Below, in pieces: positions 7,098 through 28,260 of a DNA stretch of 50,603 nucleotides (position 1 is the first letter of the stretch; each line of letters begins with the position of its first letter). The translations under genes and the position numbers were made by a program. The notes under the pieces are model-generated. The model saw nothing but the letters and a program-made list of their open reading frames with translations. It searched no databases and had not been told where the DNA came from. Source of the DNA: a virus; IMG/VR virus record IMGVR_UViG_3300032309_001784, positions 1 to 50,603 of that record; one strand, written 5' to 3'.

Positions 7098-10000
7098 ATG
7101 GCAACGATTCTCGGGCTGGCGCTCAAGATCAACGCGGACGCGAGCGGCGTTCCGCGTTCGCTCACGCCTGTCGAGAAGGCGTTGCGGTCGCTTGACGTTG
7201 AAGCGGCGAAGGTCACGAAGGTATTCGAGAACTTCGCTAAAGCCAGTGGCGCGGCCGCCGACGTGCAGAGGCGATTTGAGTCGGAGATCCAAAGTCTCAC
7301 GCAAGCCCTGCAAGCCGGCGAGATCAACGGGCAGCAGTTTGCGGATGGGTTCGCAGCGATTCGGGCCGCTGCCGGCGACTTGGCCGAAACCTTTGCCGAA
7401 GGTGCCCGCGTCACTGAGCAGTATCGAACAGAGGAAGACCGGCGAGCGGAGACGCTGGAACGCCTGGCGACCTTGCTTGAGGCTGGAGCGATCTCTGAGG
7501 CGACCTACTCTCGGGCTCGGGCCGAAGCAAGCGGCGCAAACGCTGCCGCAGCCAGAGAGGAGCAGACAAGGCTCGCGCAGATCAACAGCCTCCAGTCAGA
7601 GGCCGCAGCCATCACGGCCAGGTATCAGACAGATCAAGAAAAGCGAGCGGCGTCGGAAGCCCGCCTGAACACGCTGCGCGAAGCAGGAGTGTTGAGCGAG
7701 GAAACATACAAGCGTGCGATTGAGGATGCGAGCGGGGCGACGCAGGCGGCAGTAAAGGCAGAGCAGGAGCGATCAGCAGCTCTTGCTGAAGGCAAGAGGC
7801 TGACTGATCAGTTTTTGTCTGCCGACCAACAACGTGCGGCGGAACTGCAACGGCTCAACTCCCTCTACCGCAATGGGACTATCGAGGCCGAGACGTTTGC
7901 CCGAGCCGTTGCGTCATCGTCGCAGCAGGGAGACAGCACGCAGCTACAGCGGTTCGCGGAGGCAATCGGGCCTCTGCGCGAACAAGCCCAATCGGGGGCT
8001 ATGTCGCTTGAGGAGTTCCAGCGTGCGGCGGCTGGTATTGCCGACGCGGTCGCCGCATCGACCGCCCCAACGGTTCGCTCTGCCGAGGCAATCCTTGAAC
8101 TAAAGTCGCGGCTTGATGCCGGGACGATTTCTATTGAGGAATACCGGGCGCAGTTCGCTCAAATCCAGAGCGGCGATTTCCGCAGCACGTTCACTGTGGA
8201 GGTGCTCGGCGTCCGCGAGGGAGTTGAGGCGACCGAGCGCCTGCAATCGGCGGTTTCTAGCCTGCAAGGAACGCAGATAGAAGCCGCGTTGCAGATCACC
8301 GGCACAGAAAGCATCGACCAACTCAGGAGTCAATTCGCCAGCATCGACGGCGCGAAGATCGACGCGATCCTTCAAGTGCTGGGTGTCGAGACTGTTGACG
8401 AGGCAAAGGCCAGGCTGGCGACCATCGACGGCACGACCGTCACTGCTCAGTTGAACACGGTCGGTATTGAAAGCATCGCGCAAGCGCAGCAGGCCATCGA
8501 CAGCCTAGAGGGTAAGCAAGTCGAGGCCGTGCTGGAAATCACAGGCGCAGAGAGCATCGAGCAACTGCGGAGTGAGTTCGCCAGCATCGACGAGACAAGA
8601 ATTGATGCCGTTTTAGAAATCCTTGGCGTCGATGCCGTGGACGATGCCAAGGCTCGGCTGGCATCTCTGCAAGGAACGCAGATCGAAGCTGTGCTGCGCG
8701 TGCTGGGCGTTGATACTGTTGACGAAGCCAGATCGCGACTGGCGTCCCTTGACGGTACTACCGTCACCGCTGAACTAAACGCGGTTGGCATGGAAAGCAT
8801 CGAGCAGGCGCAGCGGGTCATTGACTCGCTGGAAGGCAAGGACATCACGGTCCTCGCCGAGACGCTCGGTGCCAGTTCTGTCGAAGAACTCACACAAATC
8901 ATCAACGCGGTGGAGTCGAAGACAGTATCGGTCGAAACCTCCACGAACGCCGACGAAACCGCCCGTGCCGTCCGGTCTCTGGTCGAAGAGCAAGATGCCT
9001 ACCAGTCGCTCCTTCGCGATGCCGAACGGCTGAACGAGGCGAATAGGTCTTCCGCCGAGAAGCAGGCCAGGCAGTTAGAACGACTCGATGCCGTCTACGC
9101 CACCGGAAAGCTGAGAATTGAGGCGTACAACGCTGAGGCGGCAAGGATTCTTGGCATCAATGAACTTGCGGCAGCGTCGGAGAGAGAGCGTGCTGCTGCG
9201 TCTGCTGCCGCAGCCGCCGACCAAGCCGCCGCGTCGCGGATCATCGAGGCAAACCTTACGAAGCAGGAGCGAGCGCAACGTGATTTTGAAAAATCGACGC
9301 AGGAGCTCAACCGTCTGAGGGCGGCGGGACGACTAACGGAATCCGATTACGCAACCGCGCTTCAGAGGACAGCGGATGCTTATGCCAAGGCCACAATCGC
9401 GGCGTCAAAGTTTGACGCTGCATCAGACAAGGCCAGTGGCGCTAGCGTTTTGAAGTTCAATGAACTGTCAGGAATCCTCTCTGCTCTGCCAGGTCCGATA
9501 GGGAATGTGGCCGGCAGGCTCTCGGGGCTGTCGTCTGCCGGTGAGGGGCTAGCGCGCGTGTTCTCTGGCGGGCTGGCTGGCGGGCTGTCGAGCGTGGGCA
9601 AGAGTGTCGCGGCCCTGGTCAATCCGTTTACGCTGGCGGTGGGTGGCGTTGTAGCGTTTGGGGCTGCGGCCCTTGCTGTCACTCGCGGGCTTGCAGCCTT
9701 GGAGGATCGTGTCGAGAACCTTGGCAACATTGCCGACAAGCTCGGCGTGTCCTTTGAGTTCATCCAAACGCTCGAAGAGGCGGCGAACCGCAGCGGTACA
9801 AGCATCGACGCAGTGAGTGCCGCGTTCGGCAGGCTTCAGAAGAGCGTGCTCGGCGTGGACGAGGAGAGCAAAGCCGCGCAGAAGGCGCTTTCGGAAATTG
9901 GCGTCACCGCAGAGGAGTTGGCACAACTCTCACCGGAGGATCAGTACCAGCGAATCGGGGCGGCTCTCGCCGACATCGAAGACCCGGCACGAAGAACGGC

Positions 10001-23182: not shown

Positions 23183-23469
23183 TCTCGCGCGTCGCTGATC
23201 TGCCGCTCTTTCGGGCGACCAACCCGGCGACATCACGGGCCGCTGCCGCCGAGGCGAAGAAGTTCCGCAGCCAGCACCACCGGCAGATCCTCGACGCACT
23301 CGCCGCTGGGCCGGCGGGGGCCAGCGGGATCGCGGCACGGTGCGGCATGGTCGCCCACCAGATCGGCAGGCGATTGCACGAGCTCGCCAAGGCTGGGCGG
23401 ATCGTGGAGACGGGCCGTGTGGTGAGGAGTGCGAGCGGGCGCGGGGAGCGTGAGTGGAGGGTGAAGTGA
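23158..23469 (+). CDS. winged-helix DNA-binding protein
   Basis: 103 residues. RQILDALAAGPAGASGIAARCGMVAHQIGRRLHELAKAGRIVETGR is a winged-helix pattern (three helices plus wing with R-rich tip). The N-terminal PATSRAAAAEAKK stretch resembles proteins often found in phage replication blocks. Overlaps the HNH gene start by one base. Confidence 0.7.
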   Translation: MHDYQFDVISRVADLPLFRATNPATSRAAAAEAKKFRSQHHRQILDALAAGPAGASGIAARCGMVAHQIGRRLHELAKAGRIVETGRVVRSASGRGEREWRVK

Positions 23470-23876
23470 TGCGACCCAACATCGACGAATACACGCGATA
23501 CATCGCTAGCCACCGCTGGGCTTGTAAGCGCGACGCTCGAAAGCAAATCGACGGCCATCGCTGCCAGACGTGCACGCACGACGGCACGCTCTGGAGGCTT
23601 GAGGTTCACCACAAGACATATGAACGATTTAAGGACGAGGACGTTGATCGCGACTTGATCACCCTATGCGTCCAGTGTCACGAAGCCGTGACGTGCGTAA
23701 TCCGGTCCCGTCGGTATGACGGCCAGCCGGTGCAAGTGTGTTTTGTTTCGGATGATTTTATTTCAAGAAAGGATGTGTCATATGGCATGGACGACTTTGA
23801 CCTACAAGATCACCGGAGACGCGCCGCTGATCATGCACAACGGCGATCTCGCAAACCCGTTGAGCAAGGCCGCTAA
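23469..23876 (+). CDS. HNH endonuclease
   Basis: 135 residues from ATG 23469. C32-x-x-C35, tandem H47-H48 (VHHKTYER) and C67-x-x-C70-H71 (LITLCVQCHEAV) give a complete zinc-bound HNH motif, with catalytic H48. The last 32 residues overlap the next gene in another frame and are probably irrelevant. It precedes the conserved protein at 23782 and the structured repeat array. Confidence 0.8.
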   Translation: MRPNIDEYTRYIASHRWACKRDARKQIDGHRCQTCTHDGTLWRLEVHHKTYERFKDEDVDRDLITLCVQCHEAVTCVIRSRRYDGQPVQVCFVSDDFISRKDVSYGMDDFDLQDHRRRAADHAQRRSRKPVEQGR

Positions 23877-24408
23877 GGCACTGAAGCAGGTTACATCGAA
23901 GAAGAAAAAGACGGACGCCGATTTTGAGCGGATGGCTGAAATCGAGTTCAAGGCTGGTCTCTACATCGACGAGGACCGCGGCCCGGTCATTCCCGGCGAG
24001 AATATCGAGGCCACGCTCTACAACGCGGCGAAGATCACGAAGGAAGGCAAGATTGCGAAGTCTGCATGCTTCGTTCCCAAGTCTGCGGTGCTTCAGTACG
24101 ACGGCCCGCGTGACGCTAACGGTCTCTGGCAGGAAGAACGCTTCCGCAACTGCGTCGGCGTGAAGGTTGGCATGAGCCGCGTGATGCGGACTCGACCGAT
24201 CTTCCACGATTGGTCGGCGATCGTCGAGGTCAAGTTTGAGGACTCGGTGGTGAACGAAGAGCAGGTCGATCGCTGGGTGCATGCGGCCGGCACGCAGGTC
24301 GGTCTCTGCGATTGGCGGCCCAGGTGCGGACGGTTCACCGCCGAGAAGGTGGCGAACACGACGCCGAAGAAGCGGAATGTTGCACCGGAGGCTGTCGGCG
24401 CGGCGTGA
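23782..24408 (+). CDS. conserved phage protein with RAMP-like sequence features, unknown
   Basis: 208 residues from ATG 23782 (AAGAAAGGA upstream; ATG 23773 is an alternative). Notable motifs: ITGDAPLIMHN at the N-terminus, GPVIPGENIEATLYNAAK in the middle and VGLCDWRPRCGRF near the C-terminus. An opening strand, an IPG-x-x-[IL]-xG/A-x-L helix and a Gly-Arg-rich loop in this order recall RAMP/Cas7-type RNA-binding folds; this is inference from motif order, not a confident family match. I remember similar unnamed proteins in other phages. It lies immediately before the eight-element array, so an RNA partner is worth testing. Confidence 0.55.
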   Translation: MAWTTLTYKITGDAPLIMHNGDLANPLSKAAKALKQVTSKKKKTDADFERMAEIEFKAGLYIDEDRGPVIPGENIEATLYNAAKITKEGKIAKSACFVPKSAVLQYDGPRDANGLWQEERFRNCVGVKVGMSRVMRTRPIFHDWSAIVEVKFEDSVVNEEQVDRWVHAAGTQVGLCDWRPRCGRFTAEKVANTTPKKRNVAPEAVGAA

Positions 24409-24488
24409 TCAATTTGGCTTGGCACGGTTTGACTAATTATGTCCTGGCTCGCTTTGTCCAGGTCGGGCATGTCGGATCGCGGCTGACG

Positions 24489-24536
24489 CCCACTCTCGTG
24501 ATAGGCACGGCAGCACCTTCGACGGTGCGGAGTGGG
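24489..24536 (+). repeat. array element 1
   Basis: P1 CCCACTC (24489-24495) / GAGTGGG (24530-24536); P2 CGTG-ATAGG-CACG (24497-24509); P3 GCACC-TTCGAC-GGTGC (24513-24528). All pairs are Watson-Crick. Confidence 0.78.
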
Positions 24537-24615
24537 ATGGGACACGGTTAGTCATGGTGCGTCAAGTTGGGTTCGGGCGTGTTCCGGTGGTATCGGTTTG
24601 GGCTCGTTATGGAAA

Positions 24616-24661
24616 CCTCTCTCGTGGTCGGCACGGTTGCGTCTTCAAGGGCGCGGAGAGG
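24616..24661 (+). repeat. array element 2
   Basis: P1 CCTCTC (24616-24621) / GAGAGG (24656-24661); P2 CGTG-GTCGG-CACG (24623-24635); P3 GCGTC-TTCAAG-GGCGC (24639-24654) with one T-G pair (24642/24651) that is allowed only if the + strand is the RNA. An extra hairpin GCACTT-AGTT-AAGTGC follows at 24665-24680. Confidence 0.78.
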
Positions 24662-24767
24662 GATGCACTTAGTTAAGTGCTGGCTCATGTCGGTCAAGGC
24701 ATGTTCGGTCCTGTTCCGGTGGGTTTTGTTGTGGCAAGACTGGGCAAGGTTAGTCGAGTTATGGAAA

Positions 24768-24813
24768 CCACCTGCACGGTCGGCGTGATTGCGGCTTCGA
24801 TGCCGCGAGGTGG
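24768..24813 (+). repeat. array element 3
   Basis: P1 CCACCT (24768-24773) / AGGTGG (24808-24813); P2 CACG-GTCGG-CGTG (24775-24787), the two sides of P2 swapped relative to other copies but still fully paired; P3 GCGGC-TTCGAT-GCCGC (24791-24806). Confidence 0.78.
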
Positions 24814-24888
24814 GATGGGTCATGGCGTGTTGGGTTCGCGTTGTATGGGGCAATGTGGGTTCGGGCAATGCGTGTCATGTCATGGAAA

Positions 24889-24933
24889 CCACCATCGTGC
24901 GGGCACGGAGGCCGATCGACGCGGCCGTGGTGG
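24889..24933 (+). repeat. array element 4
   Basis: P1 CCACCA (24889-24894) / TGGTGG (24928-24933); P2 CGTG-CGGG-CACG (24896-24907); P3 GGCCG-ATCGACG-CGGCC (24910-24926). Confidence 0.78.
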
Positions 24934-25048
24934 GATGTATCTAAGTGGTGCGTGGTTTGTCAGCGTCGGTTCAGTCAGTGCAAGGCAGGTTTCGTTCCGT
25001 TGTGGTTGGTCATGTTGTGTTCCGGTCTGGAAGGGCCAGTCACGGAAA

Positions 25049-25094
25049 CCCCACCCGTGCAGGCACGGTTCCCGATCGACGCGGGAGGTGTGGG
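25049..25094 (+). repeat. array element 5
   Basis: P1 CCCCACC (25049-25055) pairs with GGTG-TGGG (25087-25094) with one bulged T (25091); P2 CGTG-CAGG-CACG (25056-25067) with no linker base; P3 TCCCG-ATCGACG-CGGGA (25070-25086). Confidence 0.72.
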
Positions 25095-25160
25095 ATGTGT
25101 CTGGTTGGTGCAAGGCACGGCACAGTGGGTTCCGCTGTGTTCCGGCGTGGCAGGTTTCTA

Positions 25161-25205
25161 CCAAGCTCGTGCAGGCACGGGGCCGGATCAACGCCGGCGG
25201 CTTGG
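25161..25205 (+). repeat. array element 6
   Basis: P1 CCAAGC (25161-25166) / GCTTGG (25200-25205); P2 CGTG-CAGG-CACG (25168-25179); P3 GCCGG-ATCAACG-CCGGC (25182-25198). Confidence 0.78.
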
Positions 25206-25315
25206 GGTGTATTAAGGCAAGGTCCGGTCGGGTTTGGTTTGTTGCGTTCTGTTCGGACACGGTCGAACGGGGCCGGTCAAGGCTGTGTAAGGCACGTCGG
25301 TGCTGGGTATCACAA

Positions 25316-25360
25316 CCGCCATCGCGGTCGGCGCGGTGAGGCTTCGACGCCTCGTGGCGG
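25316..25360 (+). repeat. array element 7
   Basis: P1 CCGCCA (25316-25321) / TGGCGG (25355-25360); P2 CGCG-GTCGG-CGCG (25323-25335), a paired change from CGTG/CACG; P3 GAGGC-TTCGAC-GCCTC (25338-25353). Confidence 0.78.
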
Positions 25361-25430
25361 GATGTCGCTCGGTCAGGTTTGGAATGTCATGGCAGGGCAG
25401 GTTTGTGGAATGTCTAGGCTTGGTTTCTTT

Positions 25431-25471
25431 GCCCTCGTGATAGGCACGAAGCCGCTTCGACGCGGCGGGGC
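25431..25471 (+). repeat. array element 8, next to the replication gene start
   Basis: P1 GCCC (25431-25434) / GGGC (25468-25471); P2 CGTG-ATAGG-CACG (25436-25448); P3 GCCGC-TTCGAC-GCGGC (25451-25466). It ends just before AAGGAGG (25480-25486), so folding could influence translation of the gene at 25491. Confidence 0.75.
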
Positions 25472-25490
25472 GTAATTTCAAGGAGGAAAA

Positions 25491-26285
25491 ATGGCACGCC
25501 AAACAGTTGACCACTACATCCCGTTCTTTGGCCGCGACTTCTTGGCTGCTACAGCCGGATGGACCGCCGAAGAGCGAGGTCATTACGTGACGGCCTTGAT
25601 CGTCCAGTGGGAGCAGGGATCTATCCCAGACTCTCTTGAACGCCTAGAGATCATCTCGCCTGGAATCACGCGTACCTGGGCACTGCTTGAGTCGAAGTTC
25701 CCGGTATGCCGTGACGGCCGCCGCCGGAACCCTCGAATGGAGATTCATAGGGCGAAATCAGAGGCTCTAAAGGAAGCTCGCGTAGAGGCTGGCAGGGCTG
25801 GCGGGGAGGCGAATCAAGCAAACCGCAAGCAAACGGGCAAGCAAAACGGAAGCAAAACGCAAGCAAACGGGGTAGCAAACGGGGTAGCAAAACTGAAGCC
25901 TCCAACTCCAACTCCAACTCCAACTCCATCTCCTCCCCAAGAAAAACAATGCAGCGCACACACACCAGACGGCGAGGCGTGTTTTTCTGTTCAGGGGGAG
26001 GAAGAAGACACGTGGGAGTCGTTTGTCCGGTCGTGGAACGCCACTCACCGGGCCTGCCCGTGGACGCCGCTGGTTCCCCCGGCTGCGTGGGGCGACTTCG
26101 CCACGTCTGACGGGTGGCTGGGGCGAGCCGAGCAGGCGCTTGAGCGGCTGCCGGCGTGCGAGTGGTTCGACACGCCCGTGGCCCTGACGAAGTTCTTCGA
26201 GTACGTGGACCGGATTCTGGCCGGGGAGTTCGACAACCCCAAGCAGGGCCGGCGAGCACGGCAGCCCGCAGGAGGGAACCTGTGA
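25491..26285 (+). CDS. DUF1376/YdaU-type replication protein
   Basis: 264 residues with a strong AAGGAGG site. N-terminal ~90 residues match the DUF1376 pattern (DHYIPFFGRDFLAATAGWTAEERGHYVTALIVQWEQGSIP), found in phage primosomal/initiator proteins. A low-complexity linker rich in Lys/Gln/Asn/Ala, then Pro-Thr repeats, joins it to a C-terminal domain with WESFVRSWNATHRACPW and FFEYVDRILAGEFDN, a helical replisome-type region. The DNA for the linker carries in-phase repeats (25817-25891), as in lambda gene O. Confidence 0.75.
   Translation: MARQTVDHYIPFFGRDFLAATAGWTAEERGHYVTALIVQWEQGSIPDSLERLEIISPGITRTWALLESKFPVCRDGRRRNPRMEIHRAKSEALKEARVEAGRAGGEANQANRKQTGKQNGSKTQANGVANGVAKLKPPTPTPTPTPSPPQEKQCSAHTPDGEACFSVQGEEEDTWESFVRSWNATHRACPWTPLVPPAAWGDFATSDGWLGRAEQALERLPACEWFDTPVALTKFFEYVDRILAGEFDNPKQGRRARQPAGGNL
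25817..25891 (+). repeat. seven in-phase AGCAAA direct repeats, candidate replication origin
   Basis: AGCAAA begins at 25817, 25828, 25840, 25851, 25862, 25874 and 25886: steps of 11, 12, 11, 11, 12 and 12 bases, close to one helical turn, mostly followed by [AC]CG. A CCAACT hexamer repeat (25900-25928) follows. The position inside a replication-protein gene matches the lambda O / iteron arrangement. A simple low-complexity linker is the alternative reading. Confidence 0.5.
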
Positions 26286-27036: not shown

Positions 27037-27287
27037 GCGTGCGTGACTTCGTGATGCTCTCGATTGGCGAAATCATCCTGGCGGCGACGTTCGCCCTTGG
27101 GATTTTGGTTGGTGCATCCCTGAGACGAAAGGAATCTTCTCATGACGACAGCAACGGCAGAACGGAAGCGGCGGCGCAGTGGCACCGCCCTCGATATCGT
27201 GACGCTCACGGCAGCGATGAACGCAGTGAAAAACGCGGTGTCCAACCGGCCTCTCAATCCGATCATGAACAACGTGCTGCTCTGTGA
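27033..27287 (+). CDS. small membrane protein overlapping the clamp gene
   Basis: 84 residues from ATG 27033 (ATGA overlap). One transmembrane helix (FVMLSIGEIILAATFALGILVGASL) and then hydrophilic sequence that overlaps the sliding clamp gene by 146 bases, so only the first ~36 residues are independent. Real start context but the overlap lowers confidence. Confidence 0.5.
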   Translation: MSVRDFVMLSIGEIILAATFALGILVGASLRRKESSHDDSNGRTEAAAQWHRPRYRDAHGSDERSEKRGVQPASQSDHEQRAAL

Positions 27288-28260
27288 CGGGCGACTCGTT
27301 GCGGCAAACGGCGAACTGCGGATCGAGTGCTACATCGACTACGCGGGCGAGCCCGTTCTTCTCCCGTACCACCGGACCCTCGCGATCCTGCGGGCGGCGC
27401 GGCAGGGCCAGGTGCGAATTACGCCGAACGGGACGACGTGCACGATCGAGGCGGGCACTGCGCAGTGGACGCTGCCGACCGAGAGCGCCGCTGAGTTCCC
27501 GGGCACGGGGCTTGAGGACGCGCCGGCCTTGGCCCGCATCCCGTGCGACCAGTTCGCCCGGGCGGTAAACGCGGTGAGCTACGCGACCGACACGCAGGGC
27601 ACGCGGTTCGCGCTCGGCGGGATCTGCGTTGAAGTGAGCCGCAACGACGGGACGGTGACGTTCATCGCGACCGACGGCCGGCGGCTCTCGTCGTCTGAGA
27701 TCGAGATCGGGCAGGACACCGACGATGCCCAGCGGCTCGTGCCGGTGGCTGCCATGCAAACTATCCGCGATCTGTGCGACGGGCACGACGAGGAGGCGGT
27801 GCAAATCGACTCGACAGCGTCGGAGTTGATCGCGACGCTGCCAAACGCCCGCGTGATTGCCCGTCTCGTGGAAGGCAAGTTCCCGCGGTGGCGCGACGTG
27901 ATCCCAGAGCACGACACGAGCCCGACCACGGCGACGATTGCCGAACTGCGGGCCGCGACCAGTTCCGCGAGTATCTGCACGAGCGAGCAGTCGAAGGGCG
28001 TCGAGTTCACGTTCGACGGTGACACCATCGCGCTCAAGGGACAGAGCAGCGAGCACGGGACGGCGTCGGTCACGTGCCCTGTCGTGGAGGCCGGGAACGA
28101 GTGCACAGTGAAACTCGACCCGAGCTTCGTGCTCCAGTTCCTCGACGGCCTGCCGGCCGACGGTGAGCCGACGGTGTCGATTCTGACGAAAGACGCTGCG
28201 GGTGCCGTCGTGTTCCGGTGCGACGACTACACCGGGCTCGTGATGCCGCTCGGGGAGTGA
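27142..28260 (+). CDS. dnaN: DNA polymerase III sliding clamp (beta subunit)
   Basis: 372 residues, normal length for DnaN. Three-domain clamp pattern: FIATDGRRL (the ATDG[H/R]RL signature), VIARLVEGKFPRWRDVIP (domain 2/3 boundary signature LI-G-F-P-V-P) and C-terminal GLVMPLGE in place of the usual YVVMPMR(L). It tethers polymerase to DNA. No phage DNA polymerase is present in the window, so it must serve a host polymerase. GAAAGGA upstream of ATG. Confidence 0.9.
   Translation: MTTATAERKRRRSGTALDIVTLTAAMNAVKNAVSNRPLNPIMNNVLLCDGRLVAANGELRIECYIDYAGEPVLLPYHRTLAILRAARQGQVRITPNGTTCTIEAGTAQWTLPTESAAEFPGTGLEDAPALARIPCDQFARAVNAVSYATDTQGTRFALGGICVEVSRNDGTVTFIATDGRRLSSSEIEIGQDTDDAQRLVPVAAMQTIRDLCDGHDEEAVQIDSTASELIATLPNARVIARLVEGKFPRWRDVIPEHDTSPTTATIAELRAATSSASICTSEQSKGVEFTFDGDTIALKGQSSEHGTASVTCPVVEAGNECTVKLDPSFVLQFLDGLPADGEPTVSILTKDAAGAVVFRCDDYTGLVMPLGE

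What the first reader, a model, noticed from the sequence alone, without database searches (positions are those of the whole stretch)
24409..25490. Eight covarying three-stem elements arranged as four tandem blocks in a 1.08-kb gap
Each element is an outer stem enclosing two hairpins. P2 appears as CGTG/CACG in six copies, CACG/CGTG in copy 3 and CGCG/CGCG in copy 7; P1 and P3 differ in almost every copy yet remain paired. Copies lie 126, 152, 121, 160, 112, 155 and 113 bases apart, so elements alternate short and long and repeat as ~273-base pairs. Spacers are G/T-rich and C-poor on one strand. I know no named RNA family, CRISPR or iteron set with this plan. A large structured phage RNA is the leading idea, a folded replication control region the second.
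Basis: seen in the sequence. Interest (0 to 1): 0.95.

Follow-up and report, generated by a model that had tools for sequence, protein, structure and literature searches.

The report
Phage VIPR guide-RNA array, three-stem tails
The 1.08-kb gap in this phage very probably encodes eight guide RNAs of VIPR, a recently described RNA-guided weapon that phages aim at each other; the repeated three-stem structures are the constant 3' tails of those guides, and one guide matches the primase-helicase gene of rival phages that carry a lone copy of the same tail.

Summary
The eight three-stem elements are real, at the stated positions, and strongly covarying. They are the constant 3' tails of guide RNAs. 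The "G/T-rich spacers" are arrays of degenerate 5-nt units G-[G/T]-[C/T]-N-N, in the window and in relatives. This is the vrRNA code of VIPR (preprint PMC13142463, 2026). The gene just upstream (23782-24408) is 36% identical to the Vipr of phage SUSP1, and its predicted fold matches Cas7/Csm3 RAMPs. Reading the NN pairs of vrRNA3 with VIPR's 1-nt skip gives 27/28 matches in a RepB-primase/DnaB-helicase gene; the skipped base is the codon wobble. A scan of all IMG/VR contigs with that pattern hits only this gene, in seven contigs. Not in the preprint's main text: the tail is a three-way junction with a tRNA-elbow-like GG loop and T-loop, unlike SUSP1's pseudoknot; and the same tail occurs alone, without guide, between genes in dozens of phage contigs with no detectable Vipr, including all seven hit by the vrRNA3 scan. 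That invites a testable hypothesis, RNA decoys against VIPR, like Racr anti-CRISPRs; a cis-acting mRNA element is the rival. Known kind, new variant.

The parts
23782..24408 (+). vipr gene (208 aa; RAMP-like protein, phrog_4652). SD AAAGGA at 23768-23773; the longer ORF from 23716 is less likely
   Evidence: BLASTP 36% over 185 aa to SUSP1 ALH47069.1, E 3e-39; predicted fold pLDDT 86.7 matches Csm3/Cas7 chains, Foldseek 4.9e-5, VIA Z 11.1; start codon read
24409..25490 (+). vrRNA array: eight guide + tail units between vipr and a primosomal-like replication gene
   Evidence: pentamer score 219 bits, 24397-25426, against a maximum of 21.8 in 719 kb shuffled; eight tails
24416..24541 (+). vrRNA1: guide about 24416-24485, tail 24486-24541
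24542..24667 (+). vrRNA2: guide about 24542-24605, tail about 24606-24667
24688..24819 (+). vrRNA3: guide of 14 GKYNN units 24688-24757 (matches primase-helicase gene of other phages), tail about 24758-24819
   Evidence: 27/28 NN bases with 1-nt skip
24820..24939 (+). vrRNA4: guide about 24820-24878, tail about 24879-24939
24940..25099 (+). vrRNA5: guide about 24969-25038 (up to 21 units from about 24942), tail about 25039-25099
25100..25211 (+). vrRNA6: guide about 25100-25156, tail 25157-25211
25212..25366 (+). vrRNA7: guide about 25237-25306 (up to 21 units), tail about 25307-25366
25367..25479 (+). vrRNA8: guide about 25367-25424, tail 25425-25479; the tail closest to the solitary tails, ending 11 nt before the start codon of the next gene
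25491..26285 (+). primosomal-like replication gene (phrog_9327) downstream of the array; in other phages a homologue lies just downstream of a solitary tail (tail-to-start distance about 60-68 nt in many)
23454..23876 (+). HNH endonuclease gene next to and overlapping vipr; a homologue lies beside vipr in the close relatives examined. Whether it is an accessory (vap) gene is unknown

Best explanation
Window 23782-25490 is a VIPR system: a Vipr RAMP protein gene followed by eight vrRNAs. Each vrRNA has a 5' guide of about 12-20 GKYNN repeats and a constant 3' tail, a three-way junction of P1 (7 bp), P2 (4 bp, loop ending GG) and P3 (5 bp, loop UUCRA or AUCRA). Shown here by sequence: the protein homology and predicted fold, the repeat code, the covarying tail, and a specific decoded target for vrRNA3. 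Inferred from the preprint: Vipr subunits coat the guide, the NN dinucleotides pair with dsDNA while one target base is skipped per unit, and binding represses the target gene, here the primase-helicase of competing phages. Also inferred: the tail's GG loop docks into its T-loop as in a tRNA elbow and marks the 3' end for Vipr or for processing.
For: Protein: 36% identity to SUSP1 Vipr; the 42 Foldseek matches at E<=0.001 are CRISPR effector (Cas7/Csm/Cmr-type) chains, VIA Z 11.1. Repeat code: GG autocorrelation peaks at lags 5, 10, 15, 20 in the window and relatives; G 79%, K 88%, Y 96% by position; 219 bits against 21.8 in shuffles. All seven named-phage homologues examined also have such arrays, and the same scan recovers SUSP1's one upstream and three downstream vrRNAs as the preprint reports (PMC13142463). 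Tail covariation. Target: score 25 with a 1-nt skip against at most 16 for other skips or shuffled guides; the IMG/VR scan with the decoded pattern gave 7 contigs, one gene, skip base at the wobble position, identified as RepB primase + DnaB helicase. Three similar pattern scans for other guides gave zero hits, so such patterns do not match by chance. The window has no copy of the target gene (best self match 17/28).
Against: No transcript or binding data for this phage. Only one of the eight guides has a convincing target. The guide consensus is looser than GGY (second position T in 36%). No homologue of SUSP1 Vap1. The preprint is not peer-reviewed and its supplement could not be read.
Confidence: 0.93

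Rival explanations
1. A structured regulatory or scaffold RNA of another kind (ROOL/GOLLD-like, or tandem riboswitch-like elements) unrelated to VIPR.
For: Strong covariation; one strand; no Rfam match.
Against: The spacers carry the 5-nt GKYNN code, the gene upstream is a Vipr homologue, and one spacer decodes to a foreign gene with 27/28 bases.
Confidence: 0.04
2. A folded replication origin or iteron region bound as DNA by the downstream primosomal-like protein.
For: Position immediately upstream of a primosomal-like gene.
Against: Arrays follow or flank vipr, not this gene, in distant relatives (L038, L039 and named phages). Compensatory changes and a strand-specific code fit RNA. Spacers vary between close relatives.
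Confidence: 0.02
3. For the solitary tails only: they are a cis-acting element of the mRNA between a ParB-like gene and the next gene (stability, processing or translation of the downstream gene), or a conserved junction for module exchange, and VIPR arrays of this clade share that sequence by descent.
For: Usually exactly 6 nt after the stop codon and just before an SD; flanking genes differ while the tail is about 95% identical; present in one group of phages.
Against: It has the same fold and loop sequences as vrRNA tails; L069, L132 and L128 carry GGCNN guides directly upstream of the same tail.
Confidence: 0.55

Closest known systems
VIPR of Escherichia phage SUSP1 (type II; PMC13142463)
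   Same: Vipr homologue (36% identity), GGY/NN pentamer guides followed by a constant structured tail, array downstream of vipr, 1-nt-skip target with the skip at codon wobble, target in other phages.
   Different: Tail is a three-way junction rather than a pseudoknot fold; eight vrRNAs in one array; guide consensus relaxed to G-K-Y; no Vap1 homologue, HNH gene next door instead.
tRNA / tmRNA tRNA-like domain
   Same: 7-bp plus 5-bp stems, GG in one loop and UUCRA T-loop in the other; actinophage VIPR tails (L159, L162, L164, L165) contain GGTTCGANTCC-like T-arms.
   Different: No anticodon arm, no CCA, short P2 loop, T-loop often 6 nt; ARAGORN finds nothing.
Class 1 CRISPR-Cas (Csm/Cmr) arrays
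   Same: RAMP backbone protein fold; guide plus structured constant segment.
   Different: No identical direct repeats, noncontiguous 5-nt code, single RAMP protein, phage-borne.
Racr solitary-repeat RNA anti-CRISPRs (PMC10651486)
   Same: Solitary copy of a guide-RNA constant segment in phages without the effector genes: the pattern of the solitary tails reported here.
   Different: Function not tested here; these tails sit between genes right after a stop codon.

Membership tests
VIPR | Vipr protein: small RAMP homologue in a phage | tested here: met
   36% identity to SUSP1 Vipr, profile E 5e-77; Csm3/Cas7 fold
VIPR | vrRNA guide of 9-16 tandem pentamers, GGY alternating with variable NN | tested here: met
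   GKYNN arrays of about 12-21 units; consensus looser than GGY, preprint allows a related consensus
VIPR | Constant structured 3' tail after each guide | tested here: met
   Eight covarying three-way junctions; the fold differs from the SUSP1 pseudoknot
VIPR | NN matches a DNA target with a 1-nt skip, usually at codon wobble, in competing elements | tested here: met
   vrRNA3: 27/28 in primase-helicase genes; no target found for the other seven
VIPR | vrRNA expressed and bound by Vipr | not testable with these tools
   needs sRNA-seq and pull-down
VIPR | Accessory vap gene | tested here: inconclusive
   No Vap1 homologue; HNH and winged-helix genes are neighbours
VIPR | Assignment to one of the seven types | not tested
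   Supplementary data of the preprint not readable; similarity to SUSP1 suggests type II
CRISPR array | Near-identical direct repeats with unique contiguous spacers | tested here: not met
   Tails differ in many stem bases; spacers are periodic
tRNA | Anticodon arm and CCA end | tested here: not met
   Three stems only; ARAGORN none
Rfam families | Match to any curated covariance model | tested here: not met
   None at gathering or E<=5
Racr-like RNA decoy (solitary tails) | Solitary guide constant segment in phages without the effector gene | tested here: met
   34 of 37 contigs searched lack the window-type Vipr, 33 of them tail-bearing; one (L128) has a divergent Vipr-like gene, L069 and L132 carry a guide; other VIPR types not tested and contigs may be incomplete
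Racr-like RNA decoy (solitary tails) | Binds the effector and inhibits it | not testable with these tools
   needs binding and reporter assays

The most novel reading that the evidence does not exclude
The lone three-stem tails in Vipr-less phages are RNA anti-VIPRs: decoys that mimic the constant tail of vrRNAs, occupy the rival's Vipr and protect the primase-helicase gene that the rival's guide is aimed at. This would be the VIPR counterpart of Racr RNA anti-CRISPRs, with attacker, target and decoy all visible in sequence.
Probability: 0.25. Interest if true: 0.92.

Novelty: new variant of a known kind. Interest (0 to 1): 0.77.

Why it matters
VIPR was described only in 2026 and is proposed to predate CRISPR. 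This locus was reached without looking for VIPR and supports its repeat code and skip rule from sequence alone. It adds a tail architecture resembling a tRNA elbow, a decoded natural target (a replication primase-helicase in other phages), and a widespread solitary copy of the tail in Vipr-less phages, including all seven contigs matched by the vrRNA3 scan. If the solitary tails block VIPR, they would be an RNA counter-weapon against it; the test is simple.

Tried and rejected
Rfam at gathering and at E<=5: none. ARAGORN: none. blastn of the region against named phages: none. Self-cleaving ribozyme, riboswitch and ROOL/GOLLD readings dropped for lack of any match and because of the pentamer code. 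TRAP-like (KAGNN) RNA wrapping and a DNA-level origin were considered for the 5-nt period before the VIPR preprint was found. Exact 1-nt-skip patterns for parts of vrRNA7, 5 and 2 found nothing in IMG/VR: those targets may be absent, mutated or in bacteria. Rfam scan of an actinophage VIPR locus gave no tRNA match, so tRNA-likeness rests on pattern only. Model R1 finds no such tail in SUSP1 or the other named phages. Association of the tail with vrRNA3 match quality (27/28: 5 of 5 tail-positive; 26/28: 8 of 19; 25 or less: 4 of 17) is suggestive but confounded by kinship, so it is not used as proof. One scan of genome contigs with the solitary-tail pattern found one MAG contig only.

Full report
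Observation. Eight elements occur on the + strand at exactly the stated spacings. They share one plan: P1 7 bp, P2 4 bp with a loop ending GG, 2-3 nt, P3 5 bp with loop UUCGAC or AUCGACG, then P1' and usually GATG. On 41 distinct tails 15 of 16 pairs show two-sided changes and 98.3% of cells pair (slid structures about 50% at most). The alignment was padded to equal length by hand from a structural descriptor, so it leans towards the structure, but the window copies alone already show it.

The spacers are 5-nt periodic. GG dinucleotides recur at lags 5, 10, 15, 20 and are depleted in between, in the window and in eight relatives. A phase model gives G-K-Y-N-N with G 79%, K 88%, Y 96% and the last two positions nearly free; the phase model was fitted to these sequences, while the autocorrelation was not. 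A log-odds scan scores the window array 219 bits against a maximum of 21.8 in 719 kb of shuffled sequence, and finds further arrays in loci without these elements.

Identification. A literature search on pentanucleotide repeats led to the VIPR preprint (PMC13142463, read): a RAMP-like Vipr protein and vrRNAs of 9-16 YNNGG repeats capped by a structured tail, reading DNA through NN with a 1-nt skip. In SUSP1 (KT454805) the gene ALH47069.1 is the Vipr candidate: it is 36% identical to the window protein over 185 aa, and the pentamer scan recovers one upstream and three downstream vrRNAs, as the preprint states. The window protein (23782-24408) folds with pLDDT 86.7; the 42 Foldseek matches at E<=0.001 are CRISPR effector chains and VIA gives Z 11.1 with Csm3-type chains. 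All seven named-phage homologues examined have flanking arrays. So the "elements" are tails and the "spacers" are guides.

Target. Guides were turned into NN strings and compared with the fetched loci, arrays masked. Guide 3 of the window scores 25 with a 1-nt skip; the best score of any guide with another skip, or of any shuffled guide, is 16. The match is 27 of 28 bases over 14 units, 12 of them consecutive and perfect. The last two pentamers before P1 (GTTAT GGAAA) do not match and are constant among several tails, so the tail begins there. A scan of all IMG/VR contigs with the decoded pattern (22 fixed bases) gives seven contigs, all at the motif PRIMRLPGFVNWKYEQ of one protein with the skipped base at the codon wobble; Pfam: RepB primase plus DnaB helicase. 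The window and the other Vipr phages tested lack this gene. The same slot of L028 carries a related guide to the same motif (score 16), and that of L026 shares part of it. Patterns from guides 7, 5 and 2 gave nothing.

Tail architecture. Among 41 tails the invariant columns inside loops are the GG of P2 and U and A of the P3 loop, with a nearly invariant C and a purine between them. That is the tRNA elbow set (G18, G19; U55, C56, R57, A58; own knowledge), and P1 plus P3 make 12 bp. VIPR tails of actinophages contain T-arm-like GGTTCGANTCC sequences. This is inference from pattern, not a structure; Rfam's tRNA model does not match, and there is no anticodon arm or CCA.

Solitary tails. A pattern for the vrRNA8-like tail hits more than 100 IMG/VR stretches. 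In 59 parsed contexts the tail usually lies 6 nt after a stop codon, mostly of ParB-like genes (judged by eye from DGQHRL/DGMQRL motifs; no Pfam match for the one tested), and just before the SD of the next gene, with no guide. Tails are about 95% identical even where upstream genes are unrelated, while flanks are at chance; the retrieval pattern inflates part of this, but P1 and most of P3 were not in it. Full-record searches found no window-type Vipr in 34 of 37 contigs, and an L128-type Vipr-like gene only in L128; the solitary-tail contigs re-scanned with the covariance model have one tail each. Retrieval by the target gene instead of the tail gives 17 tail-positive and 24 tail-negative loci among those with a readable target, with covarying variants such as CGCG/CGCG and CCGCCA/TGGCGG, so selection on the fold appears to persist without Vipr. 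All seven vrRNA3-pattern contigs carry one. Kinship can explain that association. Decoy (Racr-like, PMC10651486) and mRNA-element readings both remain open. In L069, L132 and L128 the same tail has a GGCNN guide, which ties solitary tails and vrRNA tails together.

Verdict. The locus is a VIPR array (confidence 0.93), a known kind since 2026, with a tail form not described in the preprint's main text and with solitary tails that may be something new.

Noticed in passing
L128:1169-1744 (-), arrays 1981-2115 and 1028-1203: A divergent Vipr-like protein (weak profile match, C-terminal GTFRPFFGRYEV motif) flanked by two GGCNN arrays, the second ending in the window-type tail: probably another VIPR type using the same tail.
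   Followed up: partly
L159, L162, L164, L165 (Gordonia and Mycobacterium phages): VIPR tails of actinophages contain tRNA T-arm-like sequence GGTTCGANTCC without an anticodon arm.
   Followed up: partly
L163:5762-5819 and 7155-7212 (phage wV8): The 'DR_4' direct repeats annotated in Felixounavirus wV8 lie in the VIPR arrays and overlap the tails.
   Followed up: no
L097:7609-7893 (-) and L146:3-147: Long GGCNN arrays followed by terminator-like hairpins; no Vipr gene was found on the fetched stretches.
   Followed up: no
L069:1710-1864 (-), L132:2117-2271 (-): A single guide plus window-type tail next to a winged-helix gene with no Vipr found on the contig: a Vipr-less vrRNA, if the contigs are complete enough.
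   Followed up: partly
L006:4792-5205 and L014:3823-4125: The small genes after the solitary tail encode otherwise dissimilar proteins that end in the same basic motif (about NRxxQxRCRxRKK).
   Followed up: no
window 27142-28260: Phage-encoded DNA polymerase III beta clamp.
   Followed up: no
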